Assembly (NCBI GenBank): GCA_017630455.1
Contig: JAGBVG010000023.1
Coordinates: 62,001 to 126,000, forward strand
Origin: Alistipes sp.
Lineage (GTDB): Bacteria; Bacteroidota; Bacteroidia; Bacteroidales; Rikenellaceae
Reading direction: 5' to 3'
Length of the DNA: 64,000 bases
Position numbers and translations under genes: made by a program. Numbering within the stretch: the first letter of the stretch is position 1; each line of letters begins with the position of its first letter. This document shows, in pieces, positions 19,360 to 49,825 of this stretch. The notes beneath the pieces were generated by a model. It did no database searches. It worked only from the letters and a program-made list of their open reading frames with translations, and was not told where the DNA came from.

Positions 19360-21474
19360 ATGAAAAAAATTCTCTTTCTTATGACATTTGCAACAATGCT
19401 CGCTATGGGTGGTTGCGCTGTGGAGGGTGGCAATGCTCCGAAGCCTCTCCATATTGATAATGCCCTTACAGCTGAGGAGAAGGCTGAGGGTAAGTTCACC
19501 CCAGAGGTTATGTGGAAGATGAGCCGCATCGGCGCTCAGACCCTCTCGCCAGATGGCTCACAGCTCATCTACACCGTTACGCAGTACAACCTCGCGGAGA
19601 ACCGCGGTGTAACATTTTTGTGGTTGCGTGATATGGCTACAGGTGCTGAGCGTGCTCTCACCGACAATACCTCCACAAACACCGCTCCACAGTGGCTCGA
19701 CAACCAGACCATCGCCTTTATGTCTAACCGCTCGGGTGCTATGCAGGTGTGGGCTATGGGTGTTGATGGCACAGGTCTCACTCAGGTGACTGATATCGAG
19801 GGTGGTATCGAGGGCTTCGGCATCGCTGGTGACCACGCCTTCTACACACAGCGTGTTAAGGTAGCTCCTTTGAAGGGTTCGGATAAGTATGCCGATATGG
19901 ACAAGTCTAAGGTGCGTGTTTACGACGACCTTATGGTGCGCCACTGGGACTACTGGGATGATGGTACTTACCTCCACGTATTCGCAGCAGAGTATGCTAA
20001 TGGCAAGATTGTAAACGGCAAGGATATCATCGGTGCGGATAAGGCATACGATGCTCCTCTTGCTCCATACTTCGACACTGCGGAGATTCGCCTATCGCCA
20101 GATGGCTCATTGCTCGCATATACGTGCAAGCCTCTCACAGGCGTAGATTATGCCCTCTCAACTGATTCGGATATCTTCCTCTACGACTTCGCAACAGAGA
20201 CTACACGCAACCTCTCAAAGGAGGCTGCAGCAACAGGCGTGGATAAGTTCGTAGGTTACGACAAGTATCCAGTATTCTCACCTAACGGTAAGAAGATTGC
20301 CTTCCGCTCGCAGCGTCGCCCAGGGAATGAGGCCGACCAGCAGCGTTTGTGGGTATATGACCTCGAGACTAACGAGTGCACATACATCACACGCGGCCAG
20401 GACTACTGCGTTACTGAGGTTGCGTGGGATGGCAACGATGCTATGTACTTCATCCTCCCTTGGCGTGGCACTCACCAGGTGGCGCATATCGACCTTGCAG
20501 GAAATATGAAGCATATCACAAAGGGTAACTACGACTTCAACTCATTCACCTTCGCAGCAGGTAAGATCGTTGCCAATATGAACACCATCTCTAAGGCTGT
20601 GGAGCTTTACGACGTAAATATCGAGACTGGCGAGTTTACGCAGCTCACAGATGTAAACCGCGAGATTTACGACAACATCAAGTTTGGTGAGGTGCAGGAG
20701 CGCTGGATTACCACTACCGATGGCAAGAAGATGCTCACCTGGGTTATCCTTCCTCCAAACTTCGACCCTAACAAGAAGTATCCTACACTCCTCTACTGCC
20801 AGGGTGGCCCACAGAGCACCGTATCGCAGTTCTGGAGCTATCGCTGGAACTTCCAGCTTATGGCTGCAGAGGGCTACGTTGTTGTAGCGCCTAACCGCCG
20901 TGGTTGTCCTTCATTTGGTCAGGAGTGGACCGACCAGATTTCTGGTGACTACTCTGGTCAGAATATCAAGGACTACCTCGCAGCTATCGACGAGGTTTCG
21001 AAGGAGCCTTGGGTAGATGTTGACCATCGTGGTTGCGTAGGTGCTTCATACGGCGGCTACTCTACATACTACCTTGCTGGTGTTCACGAGAACCGCTTTA
21101 AGGCATTCATCGCACACTGCGGTATCTTCAACTTCGAGTCTATGTACGGCCACACCGAGGAGCTATTCTTCGTGACTAACGACTACGGCGGTGCATACTG
21201 GGAGACAGACAACGCCACTGCAATGCGCTCATACGCCAACTCACCACATAAGAAGGTTGCCAACTGGAACGCACCTATTATGATTATCACCGGTGAGAAG
21301 GACTACCGTATCCCTTATAGCCAGTCGTTGGAGGCCTTCACCGCAGCGCGTGTTCAGGGTCTCGATGCACGTCTCGTATCTTTCGAGAACGAGGCACACC
21401 AGGTATTCCAGCCTCAGAATTCAGTGGTTTGGAATCGTGAGTTCTTTGATTGGCTCAACACCTACTTGAAATAA
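19360..21474 (+). CDS. S9 family (dipeptidyl/acylaminoacyl) peptidase lipoprotein
   Basis: The start chosen is ATG 19360 (MKKILFLMTFATMLAMGGC), a lipoprotein signal with lipobox and Cys at about residue 19; an upstream ATG at 19285 would spoil it. The protein has 704 residues. A beta-propeller of about 430 residues has WD40-like PD40 repeats (RLSPDGSLLAYTC, VFSPNGKKIAFRSQR). The C-terminal alpha/beta hydrolase has nucleophile Ser in VGASYGGYS, an Asp in ITGEKDYRIPY and His in NEAHQVFQP. It would cleave short peptides at the cell surface or in the periplasm. The first of the stop-adjacent repeats begins at its TAA. Confidence 0.92.
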   Translation: MKKILFLMTFATMLAMGGCAVEGGNAPKPLHIDNALTAEEKAEGKFTPEVMWKMSRIGAQTLSPDGSQLIYTVTQYNLAENRGVTFLWLRDMATGAERALTDNTSTNTAPQWLDNQTIAFMSNRSGAMQVWAMGVDGTGLTQVTDIEGGIEGFGIAGDHAFYTQRVKVAPLKGSDKYADMDKSKVRVYDDLMVRHWDYWDDGTYLHVFAAEYANGKIVNGKDIIGADKAYDAPLAPYFDTAEIRLSPDGSLLAYTCKPLTGVDYALSTDSDIFLYDFATETTRNLSKEAAATGVDKFVGYDKYPVFSPNGKKIAFRSQRRPGNEADQQRLWVYDLETNECTYITRGQDYCVTEVAWDGNDAMYFILPWRGTHQVAHIDLAGNMKHITKGNYDFNSFTFAAGKIVANMNTISKAVELYDVNIETGEFTQLTDVNREIYDNIKFGEVQERWITTTDGKKMLTWVILPPNFDPNKKYPTLLYCQGGPQSTVSQFWSYRWNFQLMAAEGYVVVAPNRRGCPSFGQEWTDQISGDYSGQNIKDYLAAIDEVSKEPWVDVDHRGCVGASYGGYSTYYLAGVHENRFKAFIAHCGIFNFESMYGHTEELFFVTNDYGGAYWETDNATAMRSYANSPHKKVANWNAPIMIITGEKDYRIPYSQSLEAFTAARVQGLDARLVSFENEAHQVFQPQNSVVWNREFFDWLNTYLK

Positions 21475-21540
21475 TTTCTTGTGATAAGGGGTCGATTGCT
21501 ACCCCTAACAAAAAATGCCGTCAATGGGCTGTACGTCATT
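21472..21540 (+). repeat. Truncated left part of a stop-adjacent palindromic element
   Basis: TTTCTTGTGATAAGGGG (from 21475) and a GGGCTGTACGTCATTT stretch match the left arm and inner part of the full element that follows at 21541. The right arm is missing. The match begins at the TAA of the S9 peptidase. Confidence 0.7.
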
Positions 21541-21671
21541 TAATTTCTTGTGATAAGGGGTCATTCTCGGCCCATCCCAAAAGTAAGACCCCTCGGGCTG
21601 TACTACTTGTACTATCCCGAGGGGATCTTCTTTTGCGATAGACCAAGCCTAACCCCTTCTGACAAGAAATT
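21541..21671 (+). repeat. Stop-adjacent palindromic element, type A copy 1
   Basis: The outer arms are ATTTCTTGT (left) and ACAAGAAAT (right). Next come AAGGGG/CCCCTT, then inner stems AAAAG/CTTTT, AAGA/TCTT, CCCCTCGGG/CCCGAGGGG and GTAC/GTAC. The 3-by-3 internal loop GAT/CTG after the outer arm is shared by most copies. It follows the truncated copy. Confidence 0.85.
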
Positions 21672-21693
21672 GTAGCGCTATGGGAGGTGGTCT

Positions 21694-21821
21694 GTTAGGG
21701 AATTTAGGGAGTTTAAAGAGTTTAGTGAGTTTAGCGCTTAGCGTTTAATCCCTAACTTCTCTAACTTCTCTAAATTCCCTAAATTCTCTAATCTCCCTAT
21801 CTCCTAACTCCTATCTCTCCC
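21694..21821. repeat. Inverted array of about 9-bp units
   Basis: The left half reads as purine-rich 9-mers of the type GGGAGTTTA (about four units). The right half reads as the complement type TAAATTCYC (about eight units). The halves meet around TTAGCGCTTAGCGTTTAA. It could fold into a long imperfect hairpin. It lies between the S9 peptidase and the promoter of the next lipoprotein and codes for nothing. Confidence 0.7.
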
Positions 21822-21825
21822 CATT

Positions 21826-21856
21826 TTTGGAGAAAAGAAAAATTTTTGTATCTTTG
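21826..21856 (+). promoter_or_regulatory. Promoter of the 762-residue lipoprotein gene
   Basis: TTG at 21827-21829 and TATCTTTG at 21849-21856 are 19 bases apart, a textbook Bacteroidetes promoter. The leader is about 47 bases, A/T-rich. Confidence 0.8.
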
Positions 21857-21909
21857 CCATAATAATCAAAATTACGAAAACAAAATCTATAAACAAAAAC
21901 TATTTTATT

Positions 21910-24198
21910 ATGAGAATCAAGAACTTACTTTTGGCGCTTTTCGCATTGCCACTTCTTCTTGTGGCCTGCGATAAGGACAATCCCGTTGTGGATGAAATCA
22001 AGGATCCTACAGTGGCTGTGACCCCAGGTCTCACTGCTGAGAAGGCTATCACCTTCACAATCACATCTACTGGTGCCGATAAGGTGGCATACATCGTCGT
22101 AGAGGGCACAGAGGTTCCTACATCATCTGAAGTATTGGCAATTGGTACTGCCGTAGAGGTAAACAAGAGCGTGGAGCTTAGGGCTGGCGACCTCACCGCG
22201 GCTACAGAGTACACCATCGTTGCTGCTGCGCAGAACACCAAGGCTGTGGTTAAAGCCACTGCAACAATGACTACAAAGGAGGCTGAGACTCCAGGTCCTG
22301 GTCCAGATCCAGAGGCAGAGAAGTTCGATGCAACACACATCTTTACTGTCTACGAGAACGTTGAGGGCTCGCACGTATACTACTTCGAGGTTGGTGATAA
22401 CACCTGGGATAGCAATGGCTGGGGCGTAGATGGCGGTACTTACTACTCTTTCGCTATCATCGCTGGTGCTAAGGGCAACGGCATCCTTCCAAAGGGTACA
22501 TACGTTCTTTCGGAGTATACAAATGCTAATACCATCATCCCTGAGTATGCTTTCCGCTATCAGATGGAGAATGGCGCTCCTGTTAACGGCTTAGAAGCAT
22601 ACAAGGATGCTAACGTGGTAATTAGCGATGGCAAGATCGAGGCTAACGTAGAGTTGGAGAATGGTAAGATTTACAAGGTAGTATATGAGGGTGACCTCGC
22701 AGTAGAGGATGGTGGTAGCCAGCGTCCAGAGGAGTTCACTGCTACTCACGTTGCTGATAAGTGGTACTGGGGTGGCTCGTCAAGCTATGGCAACAAGTAT
22801 ATGGTTGCTGGTGAGGGTTTCTCTGTAGACGTTCATTTCCAGCCAAAGAACGCAACCGAGGACGCTATCGTTGCGGGTGAGTACACTTGGACTACTACAA
22901 CTATGTGGGGTTACAACGACTTCGAGGAGTTCACAACACGCACATTCACCGTGGATGGCTACTCAGTAGCTGTAGACGCTGGTGATGTTCTTGTTGCAAA
23001 CGAGGGCGATGTATACCACATCGAGATGACGTTGTATGGTCGTGATGGCTTTGTATATATGATTGAGTACAACGGCAAACTCAACGACAAGGGCGACGTT
23101 GGTGGCGGCGAGGACAATGCTCTTGTAGTTAACACTCTTGGCGAGGGTACTTACAACTCATCATACTACTTCTATACCTTTAAGGCTGCAGGTGAGAACT
23201 TCTCATTCGACCTCTTGGTAAACGAGTACCAGGCTAAGAATAATCAGATTCTTGCTGGCAGCTACCAGTATGCCCCTGGCAAGAGCTACGCTGGCAACGA
23301 GAACTACTTCTATATGGATAGCTTCAAGCTCGACGGCGTGACATACAAGGCTTCTGAGGCATCTGCAATGGTTGTTGAGGGCGATGGTACAAACGTATCT
23401 ATTCGTATGAACCTAGTTATGCAGTCTGGCGATATGTTTGTGGTAACCTACAATGGTAAGGTAGGTGACTCTAACGAGGGTGGCTCTACAGAGCTTACAA
23501 AGCTTGCTACACCATCTGTTTCAGGCCTCGTATCGGGCAATGCTGCAACTGTTAGCTGGAATGAGATTGCTGGAGCAAAGGACTACACCGTGACTCTCAA
23601 CGGCACAGATGTAAAGACTGTATCTACAGCATATATCGTTTACGATAATCTTGCTTGGGAGACAACATACAACGTATCTGTTGTTGCTAACCCTGCTGAC
23701 TCTGCTGTGAACAGCGCCTCTGACGCTGGCGTTGCATCATTCACCACCGAGGCTAACCCTAACGGTGGCGATGAGGGTGGCAACGATGACACTACTACAT
23801 CTGATGTTACATTGAAGTTCGTTAAGGACCTCTCATCGGAGTATGAGTATGGTGCAGGCTATGAGGTGTTTTGCTACTATGAGCTCACATCTGGTAACGA
23901 CGTTATCGGCTTCTGGATTTACAACAACAAGAGCGATAAGCACTACCTCTACGATGGTACTTACACTAACGGCACAAGCCTCAACCACGTTGCTTACTAC
24001 CCTTCATCAGGCGTATTCATCGAGAATGTAACTATCGATGGTCAGTACATCAGCCGCACAAATAATGGTGGTTCGCAGACATCGAGCACTATCGTTGTTG
24101 AGGAGCAGGGTGGTCACGTAGTTATCAACCTCGACTATGTTGATGATTATGCAGTATCTAAGAGCCGTACATACGAGTTCAACGGTACGATAAACTAA
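21910..24198 (+). CDS. Large repeat-containing surface lipoprotein with Fn3-like domains
   Basis: This 762-residue protein has a lipoprotein signal (MRIKNLLLALFALPLLLVAC, Cys20). Residues about 32-125 form an Ig/Fn3-like domain, followed by a Pro-Gly linker (TPGPGPDPEAE). Then come three divergent beta-rich units of about 110-130 residues (starting near 138, 276 and 398), each ending in a pattern like M-x-x-x-Y-N-G-K or V-V-Y-E-G-D. An Fn3 domain at about 530-615 (ATVSWNEIAGAKDYTV) and a fourth related unit to the end complete it. No catalytic motif is seen. It is probably surface-exposed; binding or adhesion is inference. It is transcribed alone from its own promoter. Confidence 0.8.
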   Translation: MRIKNLLLALFALPLLLVACDKDNPVVDEIKDPTVAVTPGLTAEKAITFTITSTGADKVAYIVVEGTEVPTSSEVLAIGTAVEVNKSVELRAGDLTAATEYTIVAAAQNTKAVVKATATMTTKEAETPGPGPDPEAEKFDATHIFTVYENVEGSHVYYFEVGDNTWDSNGWGVDGGTYYSFAIIAGAKGNGILPKGTYVLSEYTNANTIIPEYAFRYQMENGAPVNGLEAYKDANVVISDGKIEANVELENGKIYKVVYEGDLAVEDGGSQRPEEFTATHVADKWYWGGSSSYGNKYMVAGEGFSVDVHFQPKNATEDAIVAGEYTWTTTTMWGYNDFEEFTTRTFTVDGYSVAVDAGDVLVANEGDVYHIEMTLYGRDGFVYMIEYNGKLNDKGDVGGGEDNALVVNTLGEGTYNSSYYFYTFKAAGENFSFDLLVNEYQAKNNQILAGSYQYAPGKSYAGNENYFYMDSFKLDGVTYKASEASAMVVEGDGTNVSIRMNLVMQSGDMFVVTYNGKVGDSNEGGSTELTKLATPSVSGLVSGNAATVSWNEIAGAKDYTVTLNGTDVKTVSTAYIVYDNLAWETTYNVSVVANPADSAVNSASDAGVASFTTEANPNGGDEGGNDDTTTSDVTLKFVKDLSSEYEYGAGYEVFCYYELTSGNDVIGFWIYNNKSDKHYLYDGTYTNGTSLNHVAYYPSSGVFIENVTIDGQYISRTNNGGSQTSSTIVVEEQGGHVVINLDYVDDYAVSKSRTYEFNGTIN

Positions 24199-24222
24199 TC
24201 GACACCTATATAATATTACAAT

Positions 24223-24258
24223 GGGCTGGCTGAATTATCGGTTAGCCCTCTTTGTTGT
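24223..24258 (+). terminator. Terminator of the 762-residue lipoprotein gene
   Basis: GGGCTGGC (24223-24230) pairs with GTTAGCCC (24241-24248), with two G-U pairs, followed by TCTTTGTTGTTG. Confidence 0.6.
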
Positions 24259-24321
24259 TGTATAGTATGTTGCATCGTATTGCATAAATATGTCAGAAAT
24301 TTGCATAATTGAATAGGTTTA

Positions 24322-30632: not shown

Positions 30633-30673
30633 CGTAGATTTACCTAACGATAACATAGAAATTTTTGAGATAT

Positions 30674-31141
30674 ATGATTGATGTTAAGCATATTATGGAG
30701 ATAGCCGAGAGGTCTCTTGCCGACACCGATATGTTCGTTGTGGAGTGCAAGATATCTCCTATGGGCGATATTGAGTTGCTCATTGATAGCGATACGGCAG
30801 TAAAGTTGGAGGATTGTGCAGCGTTGAACCGTGCCATAGAGGCGGAGTTGGATCGCGAGGTGGAGGACTACTCGCTTATGGTTGCCTCGGCAGGTATCGG
30901 CTCGGAGCTTAAGCTTCTACGCCAGTACAAGAAGATTCTCGGCAACTCTGTGGAGGTGCTTCTCAAGGATGGTATCAAGATTCTCGCGAAGCTCAACGAC
31001 GCTACCGAGGAGGGTATCGCACTTTCATACGAGGAGAAGCAGGTTGTAGAGGGTAAGAAGCGCAAGGTGACTGTGGAGGTTACCAAGAGCTATGCTTGGG
31101 AGGAGATTAAGTATGTTAAAGAATACCTCGACTTCAAGTAA
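30674..31141 (+). CDS. rimP: Ribosome maturation factor RimP
   Basis: A 155-residue cytoplasmic factor for 30S subunit assembly. The start is ATG 30674 (MIDVKHIMEIAE); a TTG nine bases upstream is possible but unneeded. The N-terminal domain has DMFVVECKISPMGDIELLID and the signature VKLEDCAALNRAIEAELD. It then has YSLMVASAGIGSELK, the counterpart of the E. coli LEVSSPG region, and a C-terminal SH3-like domain. It is the first gene of the conserved rimP-nusA-infB operon. Its TAA is the start of a type B palindromic element. Confidence 0.93.
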   Translation: MIDVKHIMEIAERSLADTDMFVVECKISPMGDIELLIDSDTAVKLEDCAALNRAIEAELDREVEDYSLMVASAGIGSELKLLRQYKKILGNSVEVLLKDGIKILAKLNDATEEGIALSYEEKQVVEGKKRKVTVEVTKSYAWEEIKYVKEYLDFK

Positions 31142-31265
31142 TTTGTTGTGATAAGGGCGCATCTTCGACGCTTTGCTTGTCTGAAAATGCTCATTTACCT
31201 CAAGTAAACTCTGCTTTTTCAGCCTGCGACAAATCGTCAAATCTGACACCCTTCTGACAACAAAT
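31139..31265 (+). repeat. Stop-adjacent palindromic element, type B copy 1 (inside the rimP-nusA-infB operon)
   Basis: It begins with the rimP stop codon. Outer arms TTTGTTGT/ACAACAAA, then AAGGG/CCCTT, GACG/CGTC and TTGTC/GACAA, with an inner stem-loop CTGAAAA/TTTTCAG and TTTAC/GTAAA closed by a CTCAA loop. The internal loop GAT/CTG matches the type A copies. Confidence 0.85.
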
Positions 31266-31320
31266 AGGTGAGAGCCTCATTACTATAGTAAATAACTAAA
31301 ACAAAATATAAAGCACAAAA

Positions 31321-32581: not shown

Positions 32582-35314
32582 ATGGATAATAGCAAAAAAA
32601 TAAGGCTTATACAGGTGGCTAAGGAGTTTAAGGTGGGCTTCAACACTCTCGCCGAGTTTCTCCAGCGTAAGGGTTTGCAGAGCGACTGCTCACCCTCATC
32701 GCCAGTGTCACAGGAGGTATATGCCGCACTCGAGAAGGAGTTTGGTCATAATCGTCAGTCGGGTAACGAGCGTAATGCTGTGCGCGAGCGCATACAGCAG
32801 AAGGGTAGCGTAAGCCTTCAGTCACAGGATAAGGAGGATGAGGAGGATGAGGTTGTTGTGCGCAGCAACACCATCAGCGTCAAGGATGAGGTGCGTGGCC
32901 CGAAGATTCTTGGTAAGATAGACCTCGATGGCAATAAGCGTGCTAAGGAGGAGACTCCAGCAGCTGAGACTCCAAAGTCGGAGCCACAGCCAGCACCTGT
33001 TGCAGAGGTGAAGCCTGAGCCTAAGCCAGAACCAAAGCCAGAGCCACAGCCTGTTGTGGAGCAGAAGCCACAGCCAGAGCCACAGCCTGCGGAGGTTGCT
33101 GCAGAGCCTAAGCGCGACTCGGTATATCGCCCACAGGCTCCACATCTCGACGGCCCAAAGATCTTGGGTACTATGGATGTGTCGAATATGACCCCTGGTG
33201 GCAAGCATAAGCGTAAGCGTCTCGAGAAGGAGAAGGTAAACGTAGCCAAGGAGGGTAAGAATGGCGGCAAGCCACAGCAGGGTGGCGGAAACAATAAGGG
33301 TGGTAACAAGGGTGCGCAGCCACAGCAGGGTGGTCAGCAGCAGCCGCAGCAGCCACAGTCTAAGAAGCAGAAGAAACAGCAGAAACAGCAGCCAAAGCCT
33401 GTAGTACGCCCAGAGGTTTCGGACGAGGAGGTATCAAAGCAGATTAAGGATACCTTGGCACGTCTTACTGCCAAGGGTACAAAGTCTAAGGGTGCGAAAT
33501 ATCGTAAGGAGAAGCGCGATGAGGTTCGTGAGCGTATGAACGAGGAGATGGAGCGCGAGGAGATGGAGCGCAGCGTACTTAAGGTTACGGAGTTCGTAAC
33601 CGTAAGTGAGCTGGCTACGATGATGAGCGTCTCGCCTATGGAGGTTATCTCGGCGTGTATGAACCTCGGACTTATGGTATCTATCAACCAGCGTCTCGAT
33701 GCCGAGGCTTTGGTGGTTGTTGCCGAGGAGTTTGGCTTCACCGTGGAGTTTGTATCTGTGGAGATTCAGGAGGCTATCGAGAATGATGCCGATAGCGAGG
33801 ATGAGCTCGTTGCACGTCCGCCTATCGTAACCGTAATGGGTCACGTAGACCACGGTAAGACATCGCTCTTGGATAACATCCGTAAGACAAACGTTACAGC
33901 TGGCGAGGCTGGTGGTATCACACAGCATATCGGTGCTTACTCTGTAGAGCTTAACGGTCAGAAGATCACCTTCCTCGATACTCCAGGTCACGAGGCCTTT
34001 ACGGCTATGCGTGCGCGTGGTGCTAAGATGACTGACGTAGCCATCATCATCGTTGCTGCCGATGACAGCGTGATGCCTCAGACCGTGGAGGCTATCAACC
34101 ACGCTTCGGCTGCCGGTGTACCTATGGTATTCGCTATCAACAAGATGGATAAGCCTCAGGCAAATGCCGACCGCATCCGCGAGCAGCTCTCGCAGATGAA
34201 CATTCTCGTGGAGGATTGGGGTGGTAAGTATCAGTGCCAGGAGGTATCTGCAAAGCAGGGTCTCAACCTCGACAAGCTTCTCGAGAAGGTACTCCTCGAG
34301 GCTGAGGTATTGGAGCTTAAGGCAAACCCTGATCGTAAGGCTTCGGGTGCTGTGATCGAGTCGATGCTCGACAAGGGTCGTGGCTACGTAGCTACAATTA
34401 TGGTCCAGAATGGTACTTTGCGCGTTGGTGATGTTCTTCTCTCGGGTACTTACACAGGTCGTGTGAAGGCTATGTTCGACGAGAATGGCCGTAAGGTTGC
34501 CGAGGCAGGTCCATCAACACCTGTTCAGGTGCTTGGTCTTAACGGTGCGCCACAGGCGGGTGATACCTTCAACGTTATGGACGACGACCGCTCGGCACGT
34601 GAGATTGCCAACAAGCGCGAGCAGTTGCAGCGTATGCAGGGTATTATGACCCAGAAGCACGTGACACTCGACGAGATCGGTCGCCGTATTGCCATCGGCT
34701 CGTTCAAGGAGCTTAACATCATCGTTAAGGGTGATGTGGATGGCTCTGTAGAGGCTATGACAGGTTCGCTCATCAAACTCTCTAAGGAGACCGTACAGGT
34801 TAACGTCATCCACTCTGCCGTAGGTCAGATCTCTGAGTCGGATGTGCTTCTTGCAGCGGCATCTAACGCCATCATCGTAGGTTTCCAGGTGCGTCCATCT
34901 GCTGCAGCACGTAAGGCTGCCGAGAAGGAGCAGATCGATATCCGTCTCTACTCTATCATCTACGATGCTATCAACGAGATCAAGGATGCTATCGAGGGTA
35001 TGCTCGAGCCTGTGATGAAGGAGGAGATTGTATGCTCTACCGAGGTTATGGAGACCTTCAAGATCTCTAAGGTTGGTACTGTGGCGGGATGTATCGTTCG
35101 CGAGGGTAAGATGCAGCGCAACACGCCTATCCGCGTAATCCGCGATGGTATCGTGATCTACACCGGTAAGCTCGGCTCACTCCGCCGCTTCAAGGACGAC
35201 GTGAAGGAGGTTACCGTAGGTCAGGATTGTGGTCTTAACATCGAGTCATACAACGATATTAAGGTTGGTGATATTATTGAGGGTTACGAGCAGGTAGAGG
35301 TAAAACGCAAATAA
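32582..35314 (+). CDS. infB: Translation initiation factor IF-2
   Basis: 910 residues. An N-terminal helix ([19 protein letters not shown]) is followed by a long disordered linker (about 65-330) with Glu-Pro-Lys repeats (140-175) and Gln/Gly/Lys-rich sequence (205-270). The IF2_N domain is at about 330-385. The G domain has GHVDHGKTS (420-428), DTPGH (466-470) and NKMDKPQ (about 527-533). The beta-barrel domains and C1/C2 domains that bind fMet-tRNA complete it. It starts 31 bp after nusA. Its TAA is followed at once by a type B palindromic element. Confidence 0.97.
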
Positions 35315-35439
35315 TTTGTTGTGATAGCAGGCAATCTGCGGCGTTGGGCTTGTGGTTGAAATGCTCACATACGTCAAGTATGCTCCGCTTTCAACCACTG
35401 CGACCCACCACCACATCTCACCTGCTCTAACAACAAATT
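35312..35439 (+). repeat. Stop-adjacent palindromic element, type B copy 2
   Basis: It begins with the infB stop codon. Outer arms TTTGTTGT/ACAACAAA, then AGCAGG/CCTGCT (against AAGGG/CCCTT in other copies), with an inner stem GTGGTTGAAA/TTTCAACCAC and CATAC/GTATG closed by a GTCAA loop. Confidence 0.85.
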
Positions 35440-35513: not shown

Positions 35514-36827
35514 ATGAGCAACATTAAATTTACTACTGCCGAGGAGGCTGTAAAGTGTATCAAGTCGGGTGATCATATTCACCTCAGTTCAGTAGCTTCT
35601 GCACCTCAGTGCCTTATCAAGGCTATGTGCGAGCGTGGCCGTTCAGGTGAGCTTAAGGATGTCCACATCCACCACCTTCACACCGAGGGCCCTGCGCCAT
35701 ACGCCGACCCAGAGTTCGAGGGCGTATTCCAGCTCGATTCATTCTTCGTAGGTGGCAACGTACGTAAGGTGACACAGAGCGGCTTTGCTGATTATATTCC
35801 AATCTTCCTCTCTGAGACTCAGAAGCTCTATCGTTCGGGTGCTGTTCCTTGTAACGTGGCTATGATTCAGGTGTCACGTCCCGACAAGCACGGCTACGTA
35901 TCTCTCGGTACATCTGTAGATGCTACACTCGCAGCTGTAGAGTGCGCAGACTATGTTATTGCTGTTGTGAACAAATACGTGCCACGCTCTTTCGGTGACG
36001 CTATGATTCACTCATCACGTATCAACTTCTTCGTGGAGGATGACCAGCCACTCGAGGAGGCTCACTTCACAGCGCCTAACGAGGTAGAGACAAAGATCGG
36101 TAACCTCTGTGCAGGTCTTATCGAGGATGGTGCTACACTCCAGATGGGTATCGGTGCTATTCCTAACGCTGTTCTCGCGCAGCTCGGAGGCCACAAGAAC
36201 CTTGGTGTTCACACCGAGATGTTCGCTGACGGCGTACTCCCACTCGTAGAGAAGGGCGTTATCAACGGTGCTTTGAAGAATATCGATAAGGGTAAGATGG
36301 TATCTACATTCCTTATGGGTTCGCAGAAGGTTTACGACTTCATCGACGACAACCCTGGCGTACTTATGATGGACGTAGGCTACACCAACGACCCATTTGT
36401 AATCGCTAAGAACGATAAGGTTACAGCTATCAACTCTGCCCTCCAGGTGGATATCACAGGTCAGGTATGTGCCGACTCTCTCGGCCGTAAGTTCTACTCT
36501 GGCGTAGGTGGTCAGGTAGACTTCATCTATGGTGCATCGCTCTCTAAGGGTGGTAAGGCTATCATCGCTATGCCATCTATCACCAACAAGGGTGTATCGA
36601 AGATCTCTGACGTTCTCACCGAGGGTGCAGGTGTTGTCACCACACGTAACCACATCCACTGGTTCGTAACCGAGAATGGTGCTGTAGACCTCTATGGCAA
36701 GAGCCTTCAGGAGCGTGCGCGCCTCATCATCTCTGTAGCTCACCCATCAGCACAGGAGGCTTTGGACGAGGCAGCGTTCAACCGCTACGGTAGCCACCAT
36801 CACTATATTAAAAGCTATATGAAGTAA
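35514..36827 (+). CDS. Acetyl-CoA hydrolase/transferase-family CoA-transferase
   Basis: This 437-residue family I CoA-transferase has an N-terminal half with GDHIHLSSVASAPQCL and a C-terminal half with GGQVDFIYGASLSKGG. The catalytic Glu, which forms the CoA thioester, is predicted as Glu235 in GVHTEMFADG. GIGAIPNAVL and SLGTSVDAT are family signatures. The closest characterised types are 4-hydroxybutyrate, butyrate and succinate CoA-transferases, so a role in short-chain fatty acid or succinate fermentation is likely; the exact acceptor is not decidable. It is monocistronic, bracketed by a type B element upstream and a type A element downstream. Confidence 0.88.
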   Translation: MSNIKFTTAEEAVKCIKSGDHIHLSSVASAPQCLIKAMCERGRSGELKDVHIHHLHTEGPAPYADPEFEGVFQLDSFFVGGNVRKVTQSGFADYIPIFLSETQKLYRSGAVPCNVAMIQVSRPDKHGYVSLGTSVDATLAAVECADYVIAVVNKYVPRSFGDAMIHSSRINFFVEDDQPLEEAHFTAPNEVETKIGNLCAGLIEDGATLQMGIGAIPNAVLAQLGGHKNLGVHTEMFADGVLPLVEKGVINGALKNIDKGKMVSTFLMGSQKVYDFIDDNPGVLMMDVGYTNDPFVIAKNDKVTAINSALQVDITGQVCADSLGRKFYSGVGGQVDFIYGASLSKGGKAIIAMPSITNKGVSKISDVLTEGAGVVTTRNHIHWFVTENGAVDLYGKSLQERARLIISVAHPSAQEALDEAAFNRYGSHHHYIKSYMK

Positions 36828-36959
36828 AATTTTTTGTGATAAGGGCGCATCTGCGTCACATCGCTAAAAGTAAATATCCTTGGGCTGTAGGTCAAACTAC
36901 TATCCCAAGGATATTTCTTTTGTGATATAACACATCTGCAACCCTTCTGACAAGAAATT
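36825..36959 (+). repeat. Stop-adjacent palindromic element, type A copy 2
   Basis: It begins with the stop codon of the CoA-transferase. Outer arms TTTTTTGT/ACAAGAAA (one G-U in RNA), AAGGG/CCCTT, AAAAG/CTTTT, a perfect 13-bp inner stem AAATATCCTTGGG/CCCAAGGATATTT and GTAG/CTAC at the top. Confidence 0.85.
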
Positions 36960-42768: not shown

Positions 42769-42790
42769 CATTTTACAACCGAAGATAATT

Positions 42791-43765: not shown

Positions 43766-45552
43766 TGAAATATAATAACGATATACTTAGGCGATTGCAT
43801 CGAGAGTTATATGATGTTCTCGGCGAGGTGGTGCGTGTATGCGAGGCTGCGGGCATCCCCTATTTCATTCAGGGTGGCACGGCTATCGGAGCACACTTCT
43901 TCGAGGATATAGTGCCGTGGGATGATGATATTGACCTCGGTATGACGCGCGAAAATTATGAGCGTTTTCTTCGTGAGGCCCCTGCACTTTTGGGTGAGGA
44001 TTATCAGCTGCAGGAGTTTGCCACGGAGCCTGATACGCCGTTCTACTACATCAAAATACGCAAGCGTGGAACGCGATTTGTGGAGAGCGAGTGGGTGGGT
44101 ATGCCCATCTCGGAGGGTATCTATGTCGATATCTTTCCATACGATGTAATCCCTGATGATGAGCGACTTAGGATTGCGCAACGCCGTAAGGTGGGCTTTC
44201 TCGTAAACTGCTTTATGGCCAAGAGCGTATGGCTGTGGCGATGGTTCGGGAGGGCGAATAATGGTGTGGTGTTCCCCAAAAGTTGGTTGTCGTGTGCGGC
44301 CATAAAGCTCTATGCGTCGTTGCACACTAAGGAGCAGATATACAACCGCTTGAAGCGTGAAATGACACGCTACAATGCCACCGATGGGGTGTACTACAAC
44401 ATTGTGCGTATGCCCAAGGATATGATCTCGTGCGAGGCAATAGCGCATCTCGAGCCGCGACGCTTGGGCGAACTTACGGTTATGGCTCCTGCGGATTTGG
44501 AGACATATCTGCGTAGCCACTACGGCGACATCCAGAAGTGGCTGCCCGAGGAGAAACGCCTGAATCACGCCCCCGAGGTGCTGCATTTCGGAGAGAGCGT
44601 TACGACCGCGGAGTCGGAGTCTATAAGTGTGGTTATTCCGCTATATAATAAAGAGTTGGAGGTGGAGCGTGCCTTGCGCTCGGTGCTCTCTCAGAGCCTT
44701 ATGCCTGGCGAGATTATCGTTGTGGATGATGGCTCGACAGATGGCTCGCGTGCGGTGGTGGAGCGTGTTATGGCTGAGAATCCCACCTCGAACATCCGTC
44801 TCCTTGTGCAAAAAAATGGCGGTGTCAGCGCGGCGCGAAACAGAGGTATTGCGGAGGCTAAGGGGCGTTATGTTGCACTTCTGGATGCCGATGATTGGTG
44901 GCTCACGGGATATATCGCCGAGGTGTGCAGAATGATGGAGTATTACCCCGATGCCGAGGCCTACTCTACAGCATTTGACATAGTCTCGGGAGATAAGCGT
45001 GTGAGGGCTGCAGTGCCTGAGTGTGAGGGTGTTATCAATCCGGCGGAGGAGGCTCTCAGGAGTCGTTATCCGATCATCCCATCCACGGCAACGCTGCTTC
45101 GCAGTGCCGTTATGGAGTGTGGCGGTTTCCCCGAGGGTATGCGCATTGGCGAGGATCAGTGGCTGTGGGTGAGGATGATGCAACGCGGCTGCCGCTTCGT
45201 CTTCTCACCGATGTCGCTTGTGCGTTACTCGCGTGAGGCATCCAACCGCTCGGCAGCGATATATCGCGCGGAGCAGAGCCAGCATTCGCTCGAGGGACTT
45301 TACAGCTCCGAGCAGGATGAGCAGCTCAATGAATATATAGCCCGTATAGCCCTCGGCAAGGCCATCACGCAGAGTGTTCGCGGTGGCACGGAGGATGCTC
45401 GCCGTGCGGCCGAAAAATTCTCATATACGCATCTGTCACGCAGACAGTTGTATCGACTACGTATGCTGAACACCCTCCCCGTGGCTCTCCGTCCGCTGGT
45501 TGACAGGCTCTATTCGACCCTTGCGTGGGTGGTGAGGAGGCGTGGATTGTAG
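43765..45552 (+). CDS. LicD-family phosphotransferase fused to a family 2 glycosyltransferase
   Basis: 595 residues in two domains. The N-terminal LicD-like nucleotidyl/phosphotransferase (about 1-270) has GGTAIGAHFFEDIVPWDDDI, with the DDDID metal motif, followed by GMTRENYERFL and YVDIFPYDVIPDDE. LicD proteins move phosphocholine or similar groups onto glycans. The C-terminal GT-A glycosyltransferase (about 285-595) has SVVIPLYNKELEVERALRSV, VDDGSTDGS and LLDADDWW (DXD). The domains join through a short linker with no stop codon. It shares one base with the LuxE-like gene. The pair suggests decoration of a cell-surface polysaccharide or lipid, but no wider capsule locus is in view. Confidence 0.85.
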   Translation: MKYNNDILRRLHRELYDVLGEVVRVCEAAGIPYFIQGGTAIGAHFFEDIVPWDDDIDLGMTRENYERFLREAPALLGEDYQLQEFATEPDTPFYYIKIRKRGTRFVESEWVGMPISEGIYVDIFPYDVIPDDERLRIAQRRKVGFLVNCFMAKSVWLWRWFGRANNGVVFPKSWLSCAAIKLYASLHTKEQIYNRLKREMTRYNATDGVYYNIVRMPKDMISCEAIAHLEPRRLGELTVMAPADLETYLRSHYGDIQKWLPEEKRLNHAPEVLHFGESVTTAESESISVVIPLYNKELEVERALRSVLSQSLMPGEIIVVDDGSTDGSRAVVERVMAENPTSNIRLLVQKNGGVSAARNRGIAEAKGRYVALLDADDWWLTGYIAEVCRMMEYYPDAEAYSTAFDIVSGDKRVRAAVPECEGVINPAEEALRSRYPIIPSTATLLRSAVMECGGFPEGMRIGEDQWLWVRMMQRGCRFVFSPMSLVRYSREASNRSAAIYRAEQSQHSLEGLYSSEQDEQLNEYIARIALGKAITQSVRGGTEDARRAAEKFSYTHLSRRQLYRLRMLNTLPVALRPLVDRLYSTLAWVVRRRGL

Positions 45553-45594
45553 TCATAAAAATCTCTTTTTTTAGATTATTTCTCTCGCAGAGAG

Positions 45595-45624
45595 TTGTTT
45601 ATTACATAAGTTTTTGTATATTTG
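45595..45624 (+). promoter_or_regulatory. Promoter of pdxA
   Basis: TTG at 45595-45597 and TATATTTG at 45617-45624 are 19 bases apart. It excludes the earlier in-frame ATG at 45614 and supports ATG 45647. Confidence 0.8.
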
Positions 45625-45646
45625 TATTTCGAAACTTACGAAACTT

Positions 45647-46738
45647 ATGAACAATAGACTAAAAATAGGTATCTCGCAGGGCGATACTAATGGTATCGGC
45701 TGGGAGGTAATCCTCAAAATACTTTCGGATAATCGTATCACGGAGCTTTGCACCCCTGTGGTGTATGGCTCGGCAAAGGCTGCGGCATACTACGAGCGTT
45801 CGCTCAAGGAGTATGAGCCTGTGAAGTTTGTGGTGGTGGATGGTGCGGAGAATGCCCAGGCGGGTCGTTGTAACCTCGTGGAGTGTTGCGACGAAAACAT
45901 CTCTATCACCCCTGGCAAACCATCTAAGGCGGGTGGTGAGGCTGCTTCGGCGGCGTTGCGTCGTGCAGTTGCGGAGCTTAAGGCTGGTCGTATAGATGCT
46001 CTTGTAACGGCTCCTATCGACAAGGAGATGATTCAGAGCGAGGAGTTTAACTTTACGGGTCACACCGAGTTTCTCGCTGCGGAGCTTGGCGGCAAGCCGC
46101 TTATGATTATGGCGTCGGATCTTATGCGCGTGGGTCTGGCAACCATCCACGTTCCTGTGTCGAGGGTTGCGGAGCATCTCTCCAAGGAGCTTATCGTGGA
46201 GCGTATCGAGCAGATGAATCGCTCTATGGTTGAGGATTTTGGCGTTGTGAAGCCACGCATCGCGGTGTTGGCACTTAACCCTCACGCGGGTGATGGAGGA
46301 CTTCTCGGCTCGGAGGAGGCGGAGATTATCAAGCCTGCTATTGTCGATGCTTTCGAGAGGGATATCCTCGCGTTTGGACCTTTTGCTGCGGATGGCTTCT
46401 TCGCAGCGGGACAGTTCAAGAACTACGATGCGATACTTGCTATGTACCACGACCAGGGTCTCGCACCTTTCAAGACCCTTACGCCAGATGGTGTGAACTT
46501 CTCGGCATCGCTTGATGCAGTGCGCACATCGCCAGATCACGGCGTGGCATACGACATCGCAGGCAAGGGTATTGCCGATGAGCAGTCTATGCGCAACGCG
46601 ATCTATATGGCTATGGACATCGTTCGTCGCCGCAAGGAGTGGGCACGCTGGACAGCACGTCCTCTGGAGCACTTCGAGCGCGAGAAGGGTCGCGATATCT
46701 CCATCAAGGATTTGCCTGAGCAGGAGCATCACGACTAA
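45647..46738 (+). CDS. pdxA: 4-hydroxythreonine-4-phosphate dehydrogenase
   Basis: It oxidises 4-phosphohydroxy-L-threonine with NAD in DXP-dependent pyridoxal phosphate synthesis. From ATG 45647 there are 363 residues. It begins MNNRLKIGISQGDTNGIGWE, in which GDTNGIG takes the place of the usual GDPAGIGPE. TAPIDKEMIQ and FTGHTEFLAAELG (metal His) follow. NPHAGDGGLLG and YHDQGLAPFK carry further metal/substrate His residues, and RTSPDHGVAYDIAGKG ends the signature set. It is a homodimer in the cytoplasm. It precedes a small membrane protein by 5 bp. Confidence 0.94.
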   Translation: MNNRLKIGISQGDTNGIGWEVILKILSDNRITELCTPVVYGSAKAAAYYERSLKEYEPVKFVVVDGAENAQAGRCNLVECCDENISITPGKPSKAGGEAASAALRRAVAELKAGRIDALVTAPIDKEMIQSEEFNFTGHTEFLAAELGGKPLMIMASDLMRVGLATIHVPVSRVAEHLSKELIVERIEQMNRSMVEDFGVVKPRIAVLALNPHAGDGGLLGSEEAEIIKPAIVDAFERDILAFGPFAADGFFAAGQFKNYDAILAMYHDQGLAPFKTLTPDGVNFSASLDAVRTSPDHGVAYDIAGKGIADEQSMRNAIYMAMDIVRRRKEWARWTARPLEHFEREKGRDISIKDLPEQEHHD

Positions 46739-46743
46739 ACGCT

Positions 46744-46941
46744 ATGCATAACAAGGTTTTGGCAATAATATTTATCGTGCTCTTCAGCGTGGCATTAGCA
46801 TGGGCGGTTATGTTCTGCATAGATGCCATAGAGGGTGAGAAATGGGCCGTTGCACTAATGTCAGCAGCCGTTGCCGGCATCTCGATATTTAGAATAGCAT
46901 ACTACGCCAAAGCACTATCCCATAGGGATGAAGATAGATAG
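46744..46941 (+). CDS. Small hypothetical membrane protein (65 residues)
   Basis: It starts 5 bp after pdxA. There are two hydrophobic helices, about 5-27 (VLAIIFIVLFSVALAWAVMF) and 34-52, separated by a charged DAIEGEKW loop, with a basic/acidic tail ending KALSHRDEDR. The spacing, same strand and codon use support a real gene; no family is recognised. A link to pyridoxal phosphate synthesis is not implied. Confidence 0.55.
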   Translation: MHNKVLAIIFIVLFSVALAWAVMFCIDAIEGEKWAVALMSAAVAGISIFRIAYYAKALSHRDEDR

Positions 46942-47035
46942 AAGACACTGAGCACAACTGAGTAGTAATCCGTCTCGTTATTGTGGAGCTGCGAAGGTGC
47001 TCGAAATAATAACTTTTTAAAACAACTAAACAATT

Positions 47036-48976
47036 ATGGTTAAAGTAACCTTTCCCGATGGCTCGGTAAGAGAGTTCGCCAAAGGGACAACTGCCTTTCA
47101 GGTGGCAGAGAGCATCAGCCCTCGTTTAGCTGCTGACTCACTCGCAGCCGAGGTAAACGGCGCAACTGTAGATATGATGCGCGCTATCGATTGTGACTGT
47201 ACAATCAAATTCTTCAAGTGGGACGACGCCGAGGGTAAACACGCTTTCTGGCACACATCATCACACCTCTTGGCAGAGGCTTTGGAGGCTCTCTACCCAG
47301 GTATTAAGTTTGGTATCGGTCCTGCTATCGACAATGGTTTCTACTACGACGTAGATTCGCCTGTGGCTATCACAGAGGCTGACCTCGAGAAGATCGAGGC
47401 TAAGATGATCGAGCTTTCGCGTAACAAGGAGGCTTTGGTGCGCACAGAGGTTTCGAAGGCTGAGGCTCTCAAGACCTTCACCGAGAAGGGCGACCAGTAT
47501 AAGGTGGAGCTTATCACCGACCTCGAGGATGGTACAATCTCGTTCTATACCAACGGCGCTTTCACCGATCTATGTCGTGGTCCACATATCCCTAACACGG
47601 GTTATATCAAGGCTATTAAGTTGACCTCTATCGCAGGTGCTTACTGGCGTGGTAACGAGAAGAACAAGATGCTCACTCGTATCTACGGCGTATCGTTCCC
47701 TAAGAAGTCGATGCTCGACGAGCACCTCGCAATGTTGGAGGAGGCTAAGAAGCGCGACCACCGTAAGCTCGGCAAGGATCTCGAGTTGTTTATGTTCTCG
47801 CAGCGTGTAGGTCAGGGCCTTCCAATGTGGTTGCCTAAGGGTGCAGAGTTGCGCGACCGTTTGGAGCGTTTCTTGCGTCAGATTCAGAAGGAGTATGGCT
47901 ACCTTCAGGTTATCACCCCACATATCGGTAACAAGGATCTCTACGTTACATCAGGCCACTATGCTAAGTATGGCAAGGACTCGTTCCAGCCTATCCACAC
48001 TCCATTCGAGGGTGAGGAGTATCTGTTGAAGCCTATGAACTGTCCTCACCATTGTGAGATCTACCGCTCTAAGCCACGCTCTTACAAGGATCTTCCAGTG
48101 CGCTTGGCAGAGTTCGGTACTGTATACCGCTACGAGCAGTCTGGTGAGTTGCACGGCTTGACTCGTGTACGCTCGTTTACTCAGGATGATGCCCACCTCT
48201 TCGTGCGTCCAGACCAGTTGTTGGAGGAGTTCGAGAAGGTTATCGACATCGTGCTCTACATCTTCCGCACTCTTAAGTTCGACAACTACACCGCACAGAT
48301 CTCGCTCCGCGACCCTAACAACACCGAGAAGTATATCGGCTCGGATGAGAACTGGGAGAAGGCTGAGGGTGCTATCATCCAGGCTTGTAAGGAGAAGGGC
48401 CTCAACACCACTGTGGAGCTTGGCGAGGCTGCGTTCTACGGTCCTAAGCTCGACTTTATGGTTAAGGATGCTCTCGGTCGCAGCTGGCAGCTCGGTACTA
48501 TCCAGGTGGACTACAACCTCCCAGAGCGTTTCGACCTTACATATAAGGGCTCTGACGATAAGCTTCACCGCCCAATTATGATCCACCGTGCGCCATTTGG
48601 CTCTATGGAGCGTTTCGTGGCTGTGTTGTTGGAGCACACTGGTGGTAAGTTCCCATTGTGGCTCACCCCAGACCAGGCTGTGGTATTGCCTATCTCGGAG
48701 AAGTATAACGACTATGCTCAGGAGGTAGCTCGTCAGCTCAACATCGCTGATGTTCGCGTTCAGGTGGATGATCGTAACGAGAAGATCGGCCGTAAGATTC
48801 GCGACAACGAGCTTAAGCGTATCCCATTCCTCTTGATCGTAGGTGAGAAGGAGGCTGAGGATGGCTTGGTATCGGTTCGCGCACAGGGCGAGGGCGATAA
48901 GGGTCAGATGACTATTGCAGAGTTCGCAGAGTTTATGAAGGGCCTCGTATCAGCAGAGATTGAAGCAAATAAATAA
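47036..48976 (+). CDS. thrS: Threonine--tRNA ligase
   Basis: It charges tRNA-Thr. 646 residues is normal for the bacterial class IIa enzyme. The TGS domain is at 1-62 ([16 protein letters not shown]). The editing domain is at about 65-235, with [11 protein letters not shown] and the later zinc-type editing His/Cys in [12 protein letters not shown]. The catalytic core has [12 protein letters not shown] (zinc Cys), [20 protein letters not shown] and [11 protein letters not shown], and the anticodon domain is at the end. It precedes infC by 25 bp, the classic thrS-infC order. No T-box-like leader was seen in the 94-base upstream gap. Confidence 0.97.
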
Positions 48977-49001
48977 TAAGTCTAACTAACAATTAACTAA
49001 T

Positions 49002-49625
49002 TTGGCAGGACAATTTCCATTCCGCCCACGCCCACAGGCGCAGGGGAATAACCAGCAACAGCAGAACAACAACCAGCAGCAGCGCGACCCTCGTGGCCGT
49101 CGCCCACAGCAGGAGAACCCTAACCGAATCAACGACGAGATCACAGCACCTACAGTGCGTGTCGTAGGCGAGAACGTTGAGCCTAACCTTGTGTTGCCTA
49201 TCAAGGAGGCACTCCGCTTGGCTGATGAGATGGAGCTTGACCTTATCGAGATTTCGCCTAAGGCTGAGCCTCCAGTATGCCGCATTGCCGACTACCAGAA
49301 GTTCCTTTACCAGCAGAAGCGTAAGGCTAAGGAGATCAAGGCAAAGCAGGTGAAGGTTGTTATCAAGGAGATTCGTTTTGGTCCTCAGACCGATGATCAC
49401 GACTACAACTTCAAGCTTAAGCACGCCGAGAACTTCCTCAAGGAGGGTGCTAAGGTTAAGGCGTACGTATTCTTCCGTGGTCGCTCTATCGTCTTCAAGG
49501 AGCAGGGAGAGATTCTTCTTCTCCGTTTTGCCAACGACCTCGAGGAGCTTGCTCGTGTAGAGCTGATGCCAAAGCTCGATGGTAAGAAGATGAATATGAT
49601 TCTTGCGCCTAAATCAAAGAAGTAA
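49002..49625 (+). CDS. infC: Translation initiation factor IF-3 (TTG start)
   Basis: The start is TTG 49002: the next upstream stop is TAA at 48987 and only CAA, TTA, ACT and AAT lie between, while the first in-frame ATG falls deep in the N-domain. It has 207 residues with a Gln/Asn-rich N-terminal extension (about 10-40) before the IF3 N-domain ([16 protein letters not shown]). The linker is followed by the C-domain ([18 protein letters not shown] and [20 protein letters not shown]). IF-3 prevents subunit joining and checks the start codon, and infC of E. coli uses a rare start for autoregulation. No rpmI or rplT follows; a palindromic element comes directly after the stop. Confidence 0.95.
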
Positions 49626-49626
49626 T

Positions 49627-49757
49627 TAATTTCTTGTGATAAGGGGTCATCTTCGACTCATCCCGAAAAGTAATGGACCAAGGGCTGTACGTTTTGTACT
49701 ATCCCTTGGTCTATTCTTTTGCGATAAGCCAAATCTAACCCCTTCTGACAAGAAATT
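49627..49757 (+). repeat. Stop-adjacent palindromic element, type A copy 3
   Basis: It begins one base after the infC TAA. Arms ATTTCTTGT/ACAAGAAAT, AAGGGG/CCCCTT, AAAAG/CTTTT, AAT/ATT, GACCAAGGG/CCCTTGGTC and GTAC/GTAC. Confidence 0.85.
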
Positions 49758-49803
49758 TGGGCGTTATCCCATCGTCGGGATTTTTGCAGAGCGTTGCACT
49801 CGG

Positions 49804-49825
49804 CACCCTTCTGACAAGAAATTTA
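49804..49825 (+). repeat. Solo right arm of a type A element
   Basis: ACCCTTCTGACAAGAAATTT repeats the right end of the copy that finished 47 bases earlier; no left arm accompanies it. Confidence 0.7.

What the first reader, a model, noticed from the sequence alone, without database searches (positions are those of the whole stretch)
21472..49825. A family of structured elements of about 130 bases at stop codons, with covarying stems
Five full copies (21541-21671, 31139-31265, 35312-35439, 36825-36959, 49627-49757) and two partial ones were seen. All start with TTGTGATA plus AAGGG (or AGCAGG) and end with the mirrored arm. The base pairing is kept while the bases change: TTTCTTGT/ACAAGAAA against TTTGTTGT/ACAACAAA; AAGGG/CCCTT against AGCAGG/CCTGCT; CCTCGGG/CCCGAGG against CCTTGGG/CCCAAGG; GTAC/GTAC against GTAG/CTAC. 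This is visible covariation. All full copies are in the same orientation as the gene before them and begin at its stop codon or within a few bases, apart from 21541, which follows a partial copy that starts at the stop. They could be folded 3'-UTR RNA, terminators, or a palindromic mobile element that targets the ends of genes.
Basis: seen in the sequence. Interest (0 to 1): 0.85.

Follow-up and report, generated by a model that had tools for sequence, protein, structure and literature searches.

The report
Hairpin repeats sitting at stop codons
A gut bacterium and many of its relatives carry dozens of copies of a roughly 125-base DNA hairpin that sits right where genes stop and seems to fold from the strand opposite to the gene; how it gets there, and what moves it, is unknown.

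Summary
The five copies belong to a high-copy hairpin family, mostly 122-129 nt long, found here only in one genus of Rikenellaceae ("Alistipes sp." MAGs, mostly ruminant gut). In 1.15 Mb of a relative taken without regard to the element: 108 copies, 102 of 106 in the sense orientation of the upstream gene; 56 start exactly after its stop codon and 22 are second or third copies stacked behind a first. Covariation is very strong.

Two results change the reading. (1) The constrained fold lies on the strand opposite to the gene: G.U is 1.4% of pairs on the sense strand, 8.7% on the antisense strand, and the antisense fold is more stable in 274 of 297 copies. (2) Many copies are recent, yet orthologous gene ends are often occupied too (33 of 64), mostly by another subtype (36 of 46 comparisons).

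A plain terminator or sense 3'-UTR role is disfavoured, not excluded. Best account: a miniature hairpin element that spreads as a folded single strand to gene ends. No Y1 (REP-type) transposase and no integron integrase above cut-off in 61 genomes. Enzyme and stop-codon targeting are unexplained.

The parts
21473..21541 (-). partial copy (left part) directly at the stop codon of the S9-peptidase gene
   Evidence: sequence read; left-arm hit at 21475
21542..21671 (-). full copy, type A, second in the array (69 nt after the stop). Strand given is the one that folds best; the gene is on +
   Evidence: strand from family analysis
21695..21782 (.). purine-rich / pyrimidine-rich inverted repeat behind the array, of the kind seen behind arrays in G017
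   Evidence: inverted repeat I2, arms 21695-21728 and 21749-21782; compare
31140..31266 (-). full copy, type B, 0 nt after the stop of rimP and before nusA
35313..35439 (-). full copy, type B, 0 nt after the stop of infB
36828..36959 (-). full copy, type A, 2 nt after the stop of an acetyl-CoA hydrolase/transferase gene
49628..49757 (-). full copy, type A, 4 nt after the stop of infC
49758..49823 (-). remnant of a second copy (right part) stacked behind the full one
   Evidence: sequence read; right-arm hit 49806-49821
30665..31141 (+). rimP, gene whose stop is abutted
   Evidence: RimP_N above cut-off
32582..35314 (+). infB (IF-2), gene whose stop is abutted
35514..36827 (+). acetyl-CoA hydrolase/transferase gene
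49002..49625 (+). infC (IF-3), gene whose stop is abutted

Best explanation
A family of miniature hairpin elements, found here only in one genus, that multiplies within genomes and comes to lie at the 3' ends of genes, one end at or inside the stop codon. The form that matters is a single strand, the one complementary to the gene, folded into a long imperfect hairpin. Pairing, total length, an apical GGGnnGTAC-loop-GTACnnCCC motif and certain fixed mismatches are kept, while the sequence in between is largely free. I infer that an unidentified enzyme handles this fold, as folded single strands are handled in attC recombination or proposed for REPINs, and that new copies arrive next to the stop codon and push older ones downstream, where they decay. 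SHOWN: placement, orientation, copy number, covariation, strand asymmetry, near-identical copies at many genes, different subtypes at orthologous sites. INFERRED: mobility as a folded strand, DNA rather than RNA, stacking order. UNKNOWN: the enzyme and how the stop codon is found.
For: Unbiased 1.149 Mb of G017: 102 of 106 copies sense to the upstream gene; 56 at distance 0, 7 with the stop inside the element, 17 at 1-13 nt, 22 stacked behind others. Clusters of 21, 16 and 13 copies at >=93% interior identity at different genes; 34 of 108 have a relative at >=98%. Patchy: apex motif in 79 of 121 genus genomes, up to 132 forward / 149 reverse hits, control at most 2. Structure kept while sequence changes. 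Strand asymmetry: G.U 1.4% sense, 8.7% antisense; antisense fold lower in 274 of 297, 291 of 297 with DNA parameters, 36 of 39 also before co-directional genes; one-sided changes A.C 34 against G.T 15 in sense letters. Stop-adjacent copies have closer relatives and fewer arm mismatches than stacked ones (median 97.8 against 95.5%; 0.20 against 0.86). No antisense promoter signal to suggest an RNA gene.
Against: No enzyme found: Y1_Tnp 0 of 61; integron integrase 0 of 61 above cut-off; reverse transcriptase in 21 of 61, missing in rich G011, G017, G021, G022, G060, G067, G072; DDE_Tnp_1 in 2 of 9 and rve in 1 of 9 rich genomes; IS110 and DDE_3 0 of 9 above cut-off. No target-site duplication in 80 first-position copies. 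No longer autonomous copy in held loci. No cleanly resolved empty site (whose output I saw cut). Orthologous sites are shared far above baseline (33 of 64 against 80 of 952), which a host function would also give. MAGs often lose repeats and transposons.
Confidence: 0.45

Rival explanations
1. A conserved antisense RNA structure: the hairpin works as RNA in transcripts that run against the upstream gene, for example shielding its 3' end from antisense transcription; the interiors are exchanged between copies by gene conversion.
For: Antisense strand tolerates G.U at 8.7% and folds better; sites shared between species; stems change at 0.013 per site against 0.044 for internal unpaired sites in near-identical copies.
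Against: No promoter-like signal on that strand: 0 of 88 regions with a TTG box plus TA..TTTG, and 11 of the 23 TA..TTTG hits fall in one 10-nt bin at the hairpin end. No Rfam match. In 37 of 102 cases the next gene is co-directional, so no opposing gene supplies the transcript.
Confidence: 0.2
2. A sense-strand 3'-end module: hairpins right after the stop codon shield mRNA 3' ends, with transcription ending further downstream, perhaps by Rho in a C-rich, G-poor stretch.
For: Sense orientation and stop adjacency; convergent gene ends preferred, 48 of 266 against 32 of 672; terminator-like site within 130 nt behind in 1 of 45 against 84 of 167; C/G 2.4-2.6 at +100..260 in G017 against 1.05-1.10 without element. 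High-stability stem-loops shortly after stop codons are common in bacteria (passages of PMC1590033).
Against: Sense G.U 1.4%, ten times below tRNAs and terminators, and the complement folds better. The C-rich stretch is weak in the own genome and other species (1.42 and 1.32). A copy lies between rimP and nusA. Anywhere in the intergenic region, 16 of 45 element-bearing cases do have a terminator-like site.
Confidence: 0.17
3. An ordinary MITE moved as double-stranded DNA by a DDE transposase that recognises the inverted ends.
For: Size, inverted ends, high copy number, patchy presence.
Against: No target-site duplication; 102 of 106 in one orientation is odd for near-symmetric ends; compensatory pairing and strand asymmetry call for a folded strand; between diverged species the ends differ and the apex is kept, the reverse of a MITE; DDE families mostly missing in rich genomes.
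Confidence: 0.1

Closest known systems
REPINs (REP doublets forming hairpins) with RAYT transposases
   Same: Short non-coding hairpin units at high copy within genomes, tandem clusters, conserved ends, interior kept mainly in length and pairing with compensatory changes (passages of PMC3116915).
   Different: No Y1_Tnp (the domain family of RAYTs; link recalled) in 61 genus genomes. REPINs are described as randomly distributed in extragenic space; this element lies at stop codons in one orientation.
integron attC sites
   Same: Imperfect hairpins of comparable length (57-142 nt), poor sequence conservation, one strand (the bottom one) is the folded substrate, fixed unpaired features (passages of PMC2727003). 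Here too the complementary strand folds best. That attC lies behind the cassette gene is recalled.
   Different: No integron integrase above cut-off in 61 genomes; the GTT/AAC core of the R boxes is not seen in the arms; the genes looked at in the window are ordinary chromosomal ones, not cassettes.
ERIC / IRU and other enterobacterial miniature repeats
   Same: 127 bp, long stem-loop, co-transcribed with neighbours, orientation matters (passages of PMC2229807).
   Different: ERIC is listed there with TA termini and target-site duplications; no duplication was found here. Other phylum.
ordinary stem-loops after stop codons, including terminators
   Same: Stable stem-loops prefer convergent regions and the 50 bp after stop codons (passages of PMC1590033).
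   Different: Here a repeated family of fixed length whose stem takes in the last two bases of the stop codon, with near-absent sense G.U.

Membership tests
REPIN / RAYT system | Y1 (REP-associated) transposase in the genome | tested here: not met
   PF01797 in 0 of 61 genus genomes, control in 5 of 14
REPIN / RAYT system | paired inverted ends forming one long hairpin, interior constrained in length and pairing | tested here: met
REPIN / RAYT system | REP tetranucleotide tag (GTAG/CGTC) | not tested
   known from the title of PMC3733652 in a listing and recall; no such tag noticed in the arms
integron attC | integron integrase in the genome | tested here: not met
   TIGR02249 above cut-off in 0 of 61; weak matches to tyrosine recombinases in 61 of 61 and in 14 of 14 controls
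integron attC | R boxes with GTT/AAC core | tested here: not met
   read by eye in the consensus of A1 and A2; no pattern search was run
integron attC | bottom strand is the folded one | tested here: met
   in the sense that the strand opposite to the gene folds better, 274 of 297; recombination not testable
MITE of a DDE transposon / ERIC | target-site duplication | tested here: not met
   80 copies, duplications of 2-9 nt at 0-7 nt offsets; largest excess 12.8 over 174.2 expected matches; resolved empty sites were not available
MITE of a DDE transposon / ERIC | matching transposase in element-rich genomes | tested here: inconclusive
   DDE_Tnp_1 in 2 of 9, rve in 1 of 9, DDE_3 in 0 of 9 rich genomes; other DDE families not tested, MAGs incomplete
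known structured RNA | match to an Rfam 15 model | tested here: not met
   window at gathering: only a tRNA; five loci at E<=1: two miRNA-precursor matches far below gathering score
intrinsic terminator | GC-rich hairpin followed by a T-tract | tested here: not met
   composition after the last element has no T-tract (T 0.37-0.40 in the first 20 nt); termination itself not testable

The most novel reading that the evidence does not exclude
A selfish hairpin whose insertion is addressed to translation stop codons: it arrives as a folded single strand of fixed polarity, joins inside the stop codon and supplies its last base (genes with TAG in empty relatives have TAA when occupied), so the gene stays intact. 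No shared sequence upstream of the stop was seen, so the address would have to be read from something that knows where translation ends, such as a terminating ribosome or an mRNA cut there. That would be a new kind of safe-site targeting.
Probability: 0.15. Interest if true: 0.93.

Novelty: new variant of a known kind. Interest (0 to 1): 0.74.

Why it matters
If these hairpins are placed at stop codons by an insertion mechanism, bacteria have a repeat that finds a position after a gene that does no harm, without a transposase of the kinds tested here. Even if they are host structures, a gene-end hairpin whose working strand is the opposite one, with its sequence exchanged between species but its place kept, is unusual. 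The G.U against A.C asymmetry used here is a simple way to ask which strand of any palindromic repeat is the working one, and could be applied to REPINs, ERIC and attC sites.

Tried and rejected
Enzymes: seven families tested (three in 61 genomes, four in 13 genomes: nine rich, four without the element); none follows the element. Reverse transcriptase does occur in some rich genomes (G000, G003, G041, G056, G057). Autonomous longer copies: no neighbouring left-right arm pair more than 140 nt apart in the loci held then. Viral contigs with an exact two-arm pattern: 0. Phage and plasmid records, one copy as query: no match. Apex motif in 246 other genomes of the order: 15 have 1-2 hits per strand, 16 have hits of the reversed control, so chance.

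Unknown arm types: scanning 340 kb for long hairpins gave 690 candidates, too unspecific. Folding the 150 nt after each stop instead: 29 of 265 ORF ends have a single hairpin of >=30 bp; 14 of them are this element, the other 15 by eye are not.

Instant arm-to-arm copying as the source of covariation: rejected for most stem positions, since the share of double changes rises from 0.03 to 0.42 with divergence. All 7 examples of double changes within 3 differences are the C/G position of the arm, which I cannot explain. A mutational strand bias as the source of the A.C excess: unpaired sites show A/G 94 and C/T 79, so not supported.

Rho/3'-end module: strong in G017, weak elsewhere. Antisense promoter: not seen. 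Ortholog comparison with the own genome gave 3 usable sites, 1 occupied, and was redone with other species. Pair counts on A1 were not obtained. Empty-site alignments showed empty and differently occupied orthologs, but the intergenic DNA was too diverged to fix both junctions; both outputs were cut.

Rows dropped: copies with more arm mismatches than the limits (decayed copies), copies with short flanks, 2 orthologs at contig edges, tRNAs outside 70-95 nt.

Papers: search listings only; passages of four papers. Those searches listed no report of this element; they cover openly licensed PMC papers only. RelE-type cleavage at stop codons, the place of attC behind cassette genes and Rho-dependent trimming are recalled.
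Full report
WHAT WAS CHECKED. The window is G000:C10:62001-126000 of a 2.0-Mb, 93-contig assembly, 90.3% complete, 7.2% contaminated. In this genome the arm pattern hits 52 times with 1 control hit. A covariance model from 28 own copies (A1; R1) gives 115 hits, including mirror-strand hits to the same places.

WHERE IT OCCURS. R1 matches 15 of 41 genomes: 15 of 25 of the genus (own included), 0 of 16 from other families of the order (stricter filters there lose weak matches). In diverged species of the genus the arms and much of the interior differ, but length (about 125 nt), the long hairpin and the apex are kept (14 loci). The apex pattern GGGNNGTACN{4,6}GTACN{2,3}CCC is in 79 of 121 genus genomes, up to 132 forward and 149 reverse hits, controls at most 2. 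Elsewhere in the order it is at control level: 15 of 246 genomes with a hit, 16 with a control hit. Viral contigs, phages, plasmids: none.

PLACEMENT. From the loci held then, 205 distinct copies were collected under fixed mismatch limits, so decayed copies are missed; 201 of 205 are 122-129 nt. Of 190 with at least 400 nt upstream, 84 begin exactly after a stop codon and in 12 the gene stops at the TGA inside the element. The mirror control has no ORF end nearby in 118 of 165 and is flat apart from small heaps at +11 (4) and +21 (5). These loci were chosen for the element, so I repeated the count in 1.149 Mb of G017: 108 copies; upstream gene on the same strand in 102 of 106; distance 0 in 56, stop inside the element in 7, 1-13 nt in 17, and 22 at 118-266 nt as second or third copies of an array. 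Stops at distance 0 are TAA 53, TGA 2, TAG 1, against 592 TAA, 298 TAG, 62 TGA in 952 ORFs (p=1.5e-8). Six copies overlap a called ORF; I did not examine them singly. In the own genome 12 of 32 usable copies are at 0, 10 within 4 nt, 4 have the stop inside, 3 lie further away and 3 had no ORF stop in range. Stable stem-loops near stop codons are common in bacteria (passages of PMC1590033); the exactness and the single repeated family are what is unusual.

STRUCTURE AND COVARIATION. On 24 non-redundant type-A copies (A2) the full-length hairpin has 94.7% paired cells and a covariation score of 0.314 against 0.084 in shuffles (0 of 500 reach it) and at most 0.057 slid. The structure came from these sequences, which favours it over the slid versions, and the shuffles ignore relatedness. 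On 300 copies the C/G arm position pairs in 275 against 137.7 expected if independent; pairing extends two bases beyond the arms (277 against 228.1, 220 against 191.4) and not a third (145 against 162.0); two positions are nearly always mismatched, G.G/G.A (paired in 7 of 300) and T.C (paired in 3 of 300). In most copies those two outer bases are the last two of the stop codon; where it is TAG in the offset-0 set (5 copies) the opposite base is C in 3 and T in 2.

THE STRAND. Sense-strand folds have G.U in 184 of 13,573 pairs (1.4%), against 13.3% in 18 tRNAs, 14.8% in 196 terminator-like hairpins and 13.6% in random windows of G017. Folding the complement gives 1,293 of 14,823 (8.7%) and a mean of -68.0 against -54.6 kcal/mol, lower in 274 and higher in 23 of 297 copies. 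DNA parameters agree (291 of 297), and so do copies before co-directional (36 of 39) and convergent genes (61 of 67); tRNAs, as control, fold better on their own strand in 18 of 18. Between near-identical copies one-sided stem changes give A.C 34 and G.T 15 in sense letters (p=0.009), that is, G.U on the complement is the tolerated one; unpaired sites show no such bias (A/G 94, C/T 79). The ATCT found on both sides of an inner loop reads AGAT on the complement, which would allow tandem G.A pairs (by inspection). So the constrained molecule is the strand opposite to the gene. DNA or RNA is not decided; no promoter signal was seen that would make it an RNA gene, and nothing in Rfam matches.

CONSTRAINT. 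In 111 nearest-neighbour comparisons stems change at 0.013 per site, internal unpaired sites at 0.044, the apical loop at 0.10.

TURNOVER. In G017, 87 of 108 copies have a relative at >=93% and 34 at >=98% interior identity; clusters of 21, 16 and 13 lie at different genes. Copies next to the stop (80) have closer relatives and fewer arm mismatches than the 22 behind them (97.8 against 95.5%, p=0.02; 0.20 against 0.86); stronger constraint on the first copy would give the same. Of 137 first-position copies from other species, 86 had an ortholog end in the held part of G017; 2 were dropped at edges, leaving 64 distinct sites: 33 occupied, 31 empty, against 80 of 952 ORFs overall. The baseline is not matched for gene-end type. 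At occupied sites the subtype differs in 36 of 46 comparisons. Occupied orthologs stop with TAA in 33 of 33, empty ones with TAA 17, TAG 13, TGA 1 (p=5.5e-6). This can be read as recurrent arrival at preferred gene ends or as conserved sites whose interior is exchanged.

SURROUNDINGS. In G017, 32 of 108 copies are followed by another element. Behind the array comes GTGCGCTGATTGAGGTGG: 47 of 66 hits lie within 60 nt of an element, 41 of them at 2-5 nt; several of the other 19 follow element remnants, the rest are near the control level of 11. Then a purine-rich/pyrimidine-rich inverted repeat and, at +100..260, a C-rich, G-poor stretch (C/G 2.37 and 2.62 against 1.10 and 1.05 without element). 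In the own genome and other species this is weaker (1.42 in 14 and 1.32 in 67 sequences). Convergent gene ends carry the element more often (48 of 266 against 32 of 672), and terminator-like sites within 130 nt behind it are rare (1 of 45 against 84 of 167; anywhere in the intergenic region 16 of 45 against 91 of 167). In the window one copy sits between rimP and nusA, followed by infB, where a strong terminator would be costly.

MACHINERY. None of seven enzyme families tracks the element. No target-site duplication, no autonomous copy.

CONCLUSION. It resembles REPINs in build and attC sites in polarity and size but fails the enzyme tests of both. I file it as a new variant of miniature hairpin elements with two features that the systems compared here do not explain: exact placement at stop codons, and constraint on the strand opposite to the gene.

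Noticed in passing
L147 (site orthologous to L190:3032), L017 and the DNA just upstream of the copies in L011 and L014: A second kind of outer arm, AATTTTTGATTTTATAGGAGC ... GCTCCTCTAAAATCAAAAATT, also at gene ends and with similar interiors.
   Followed up: partly
window 21695-21782; G017 intergenic regions: Purine-rich/pyrimidine-rich minisatellite-like inverted repeats behind the hairpin arrays, variable in length.
   Followed up: partly
G017, 2-5 nt behind the last hairpin: Conserved 18-mer GTGCGCTGATTGAGGTGG, nearly confined to positions behind the element; other species have a looser version. Role unknown.
   Followed up: partly
window 49854-49884 and 49968-49998: Another short palindromic repeat, CATCCTTCGACTTCGCTCGGGATGACAT, two copies 114 nt apart behind the infC copy.
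   Followed up: no
G017 clusters: The 4-6 nt apical loop between the two GTAC motifs varies among otherwise near-identical copies (rate 0.10 per site), and the arm base C/G flips on both sides together within 2-3 total differences.
   Followed up: partly
G072, G315: Genomes with the highest counts of the apex motif (102/149 and 132/132); their copies were not examined.
   Followed up: no
G023, G070, G331 and other larger genomes of the genus: Larger genomes (2.9-3.5 Mb) tend to lack the element; whether this is phylogeny was not tested.
   Followed up: no
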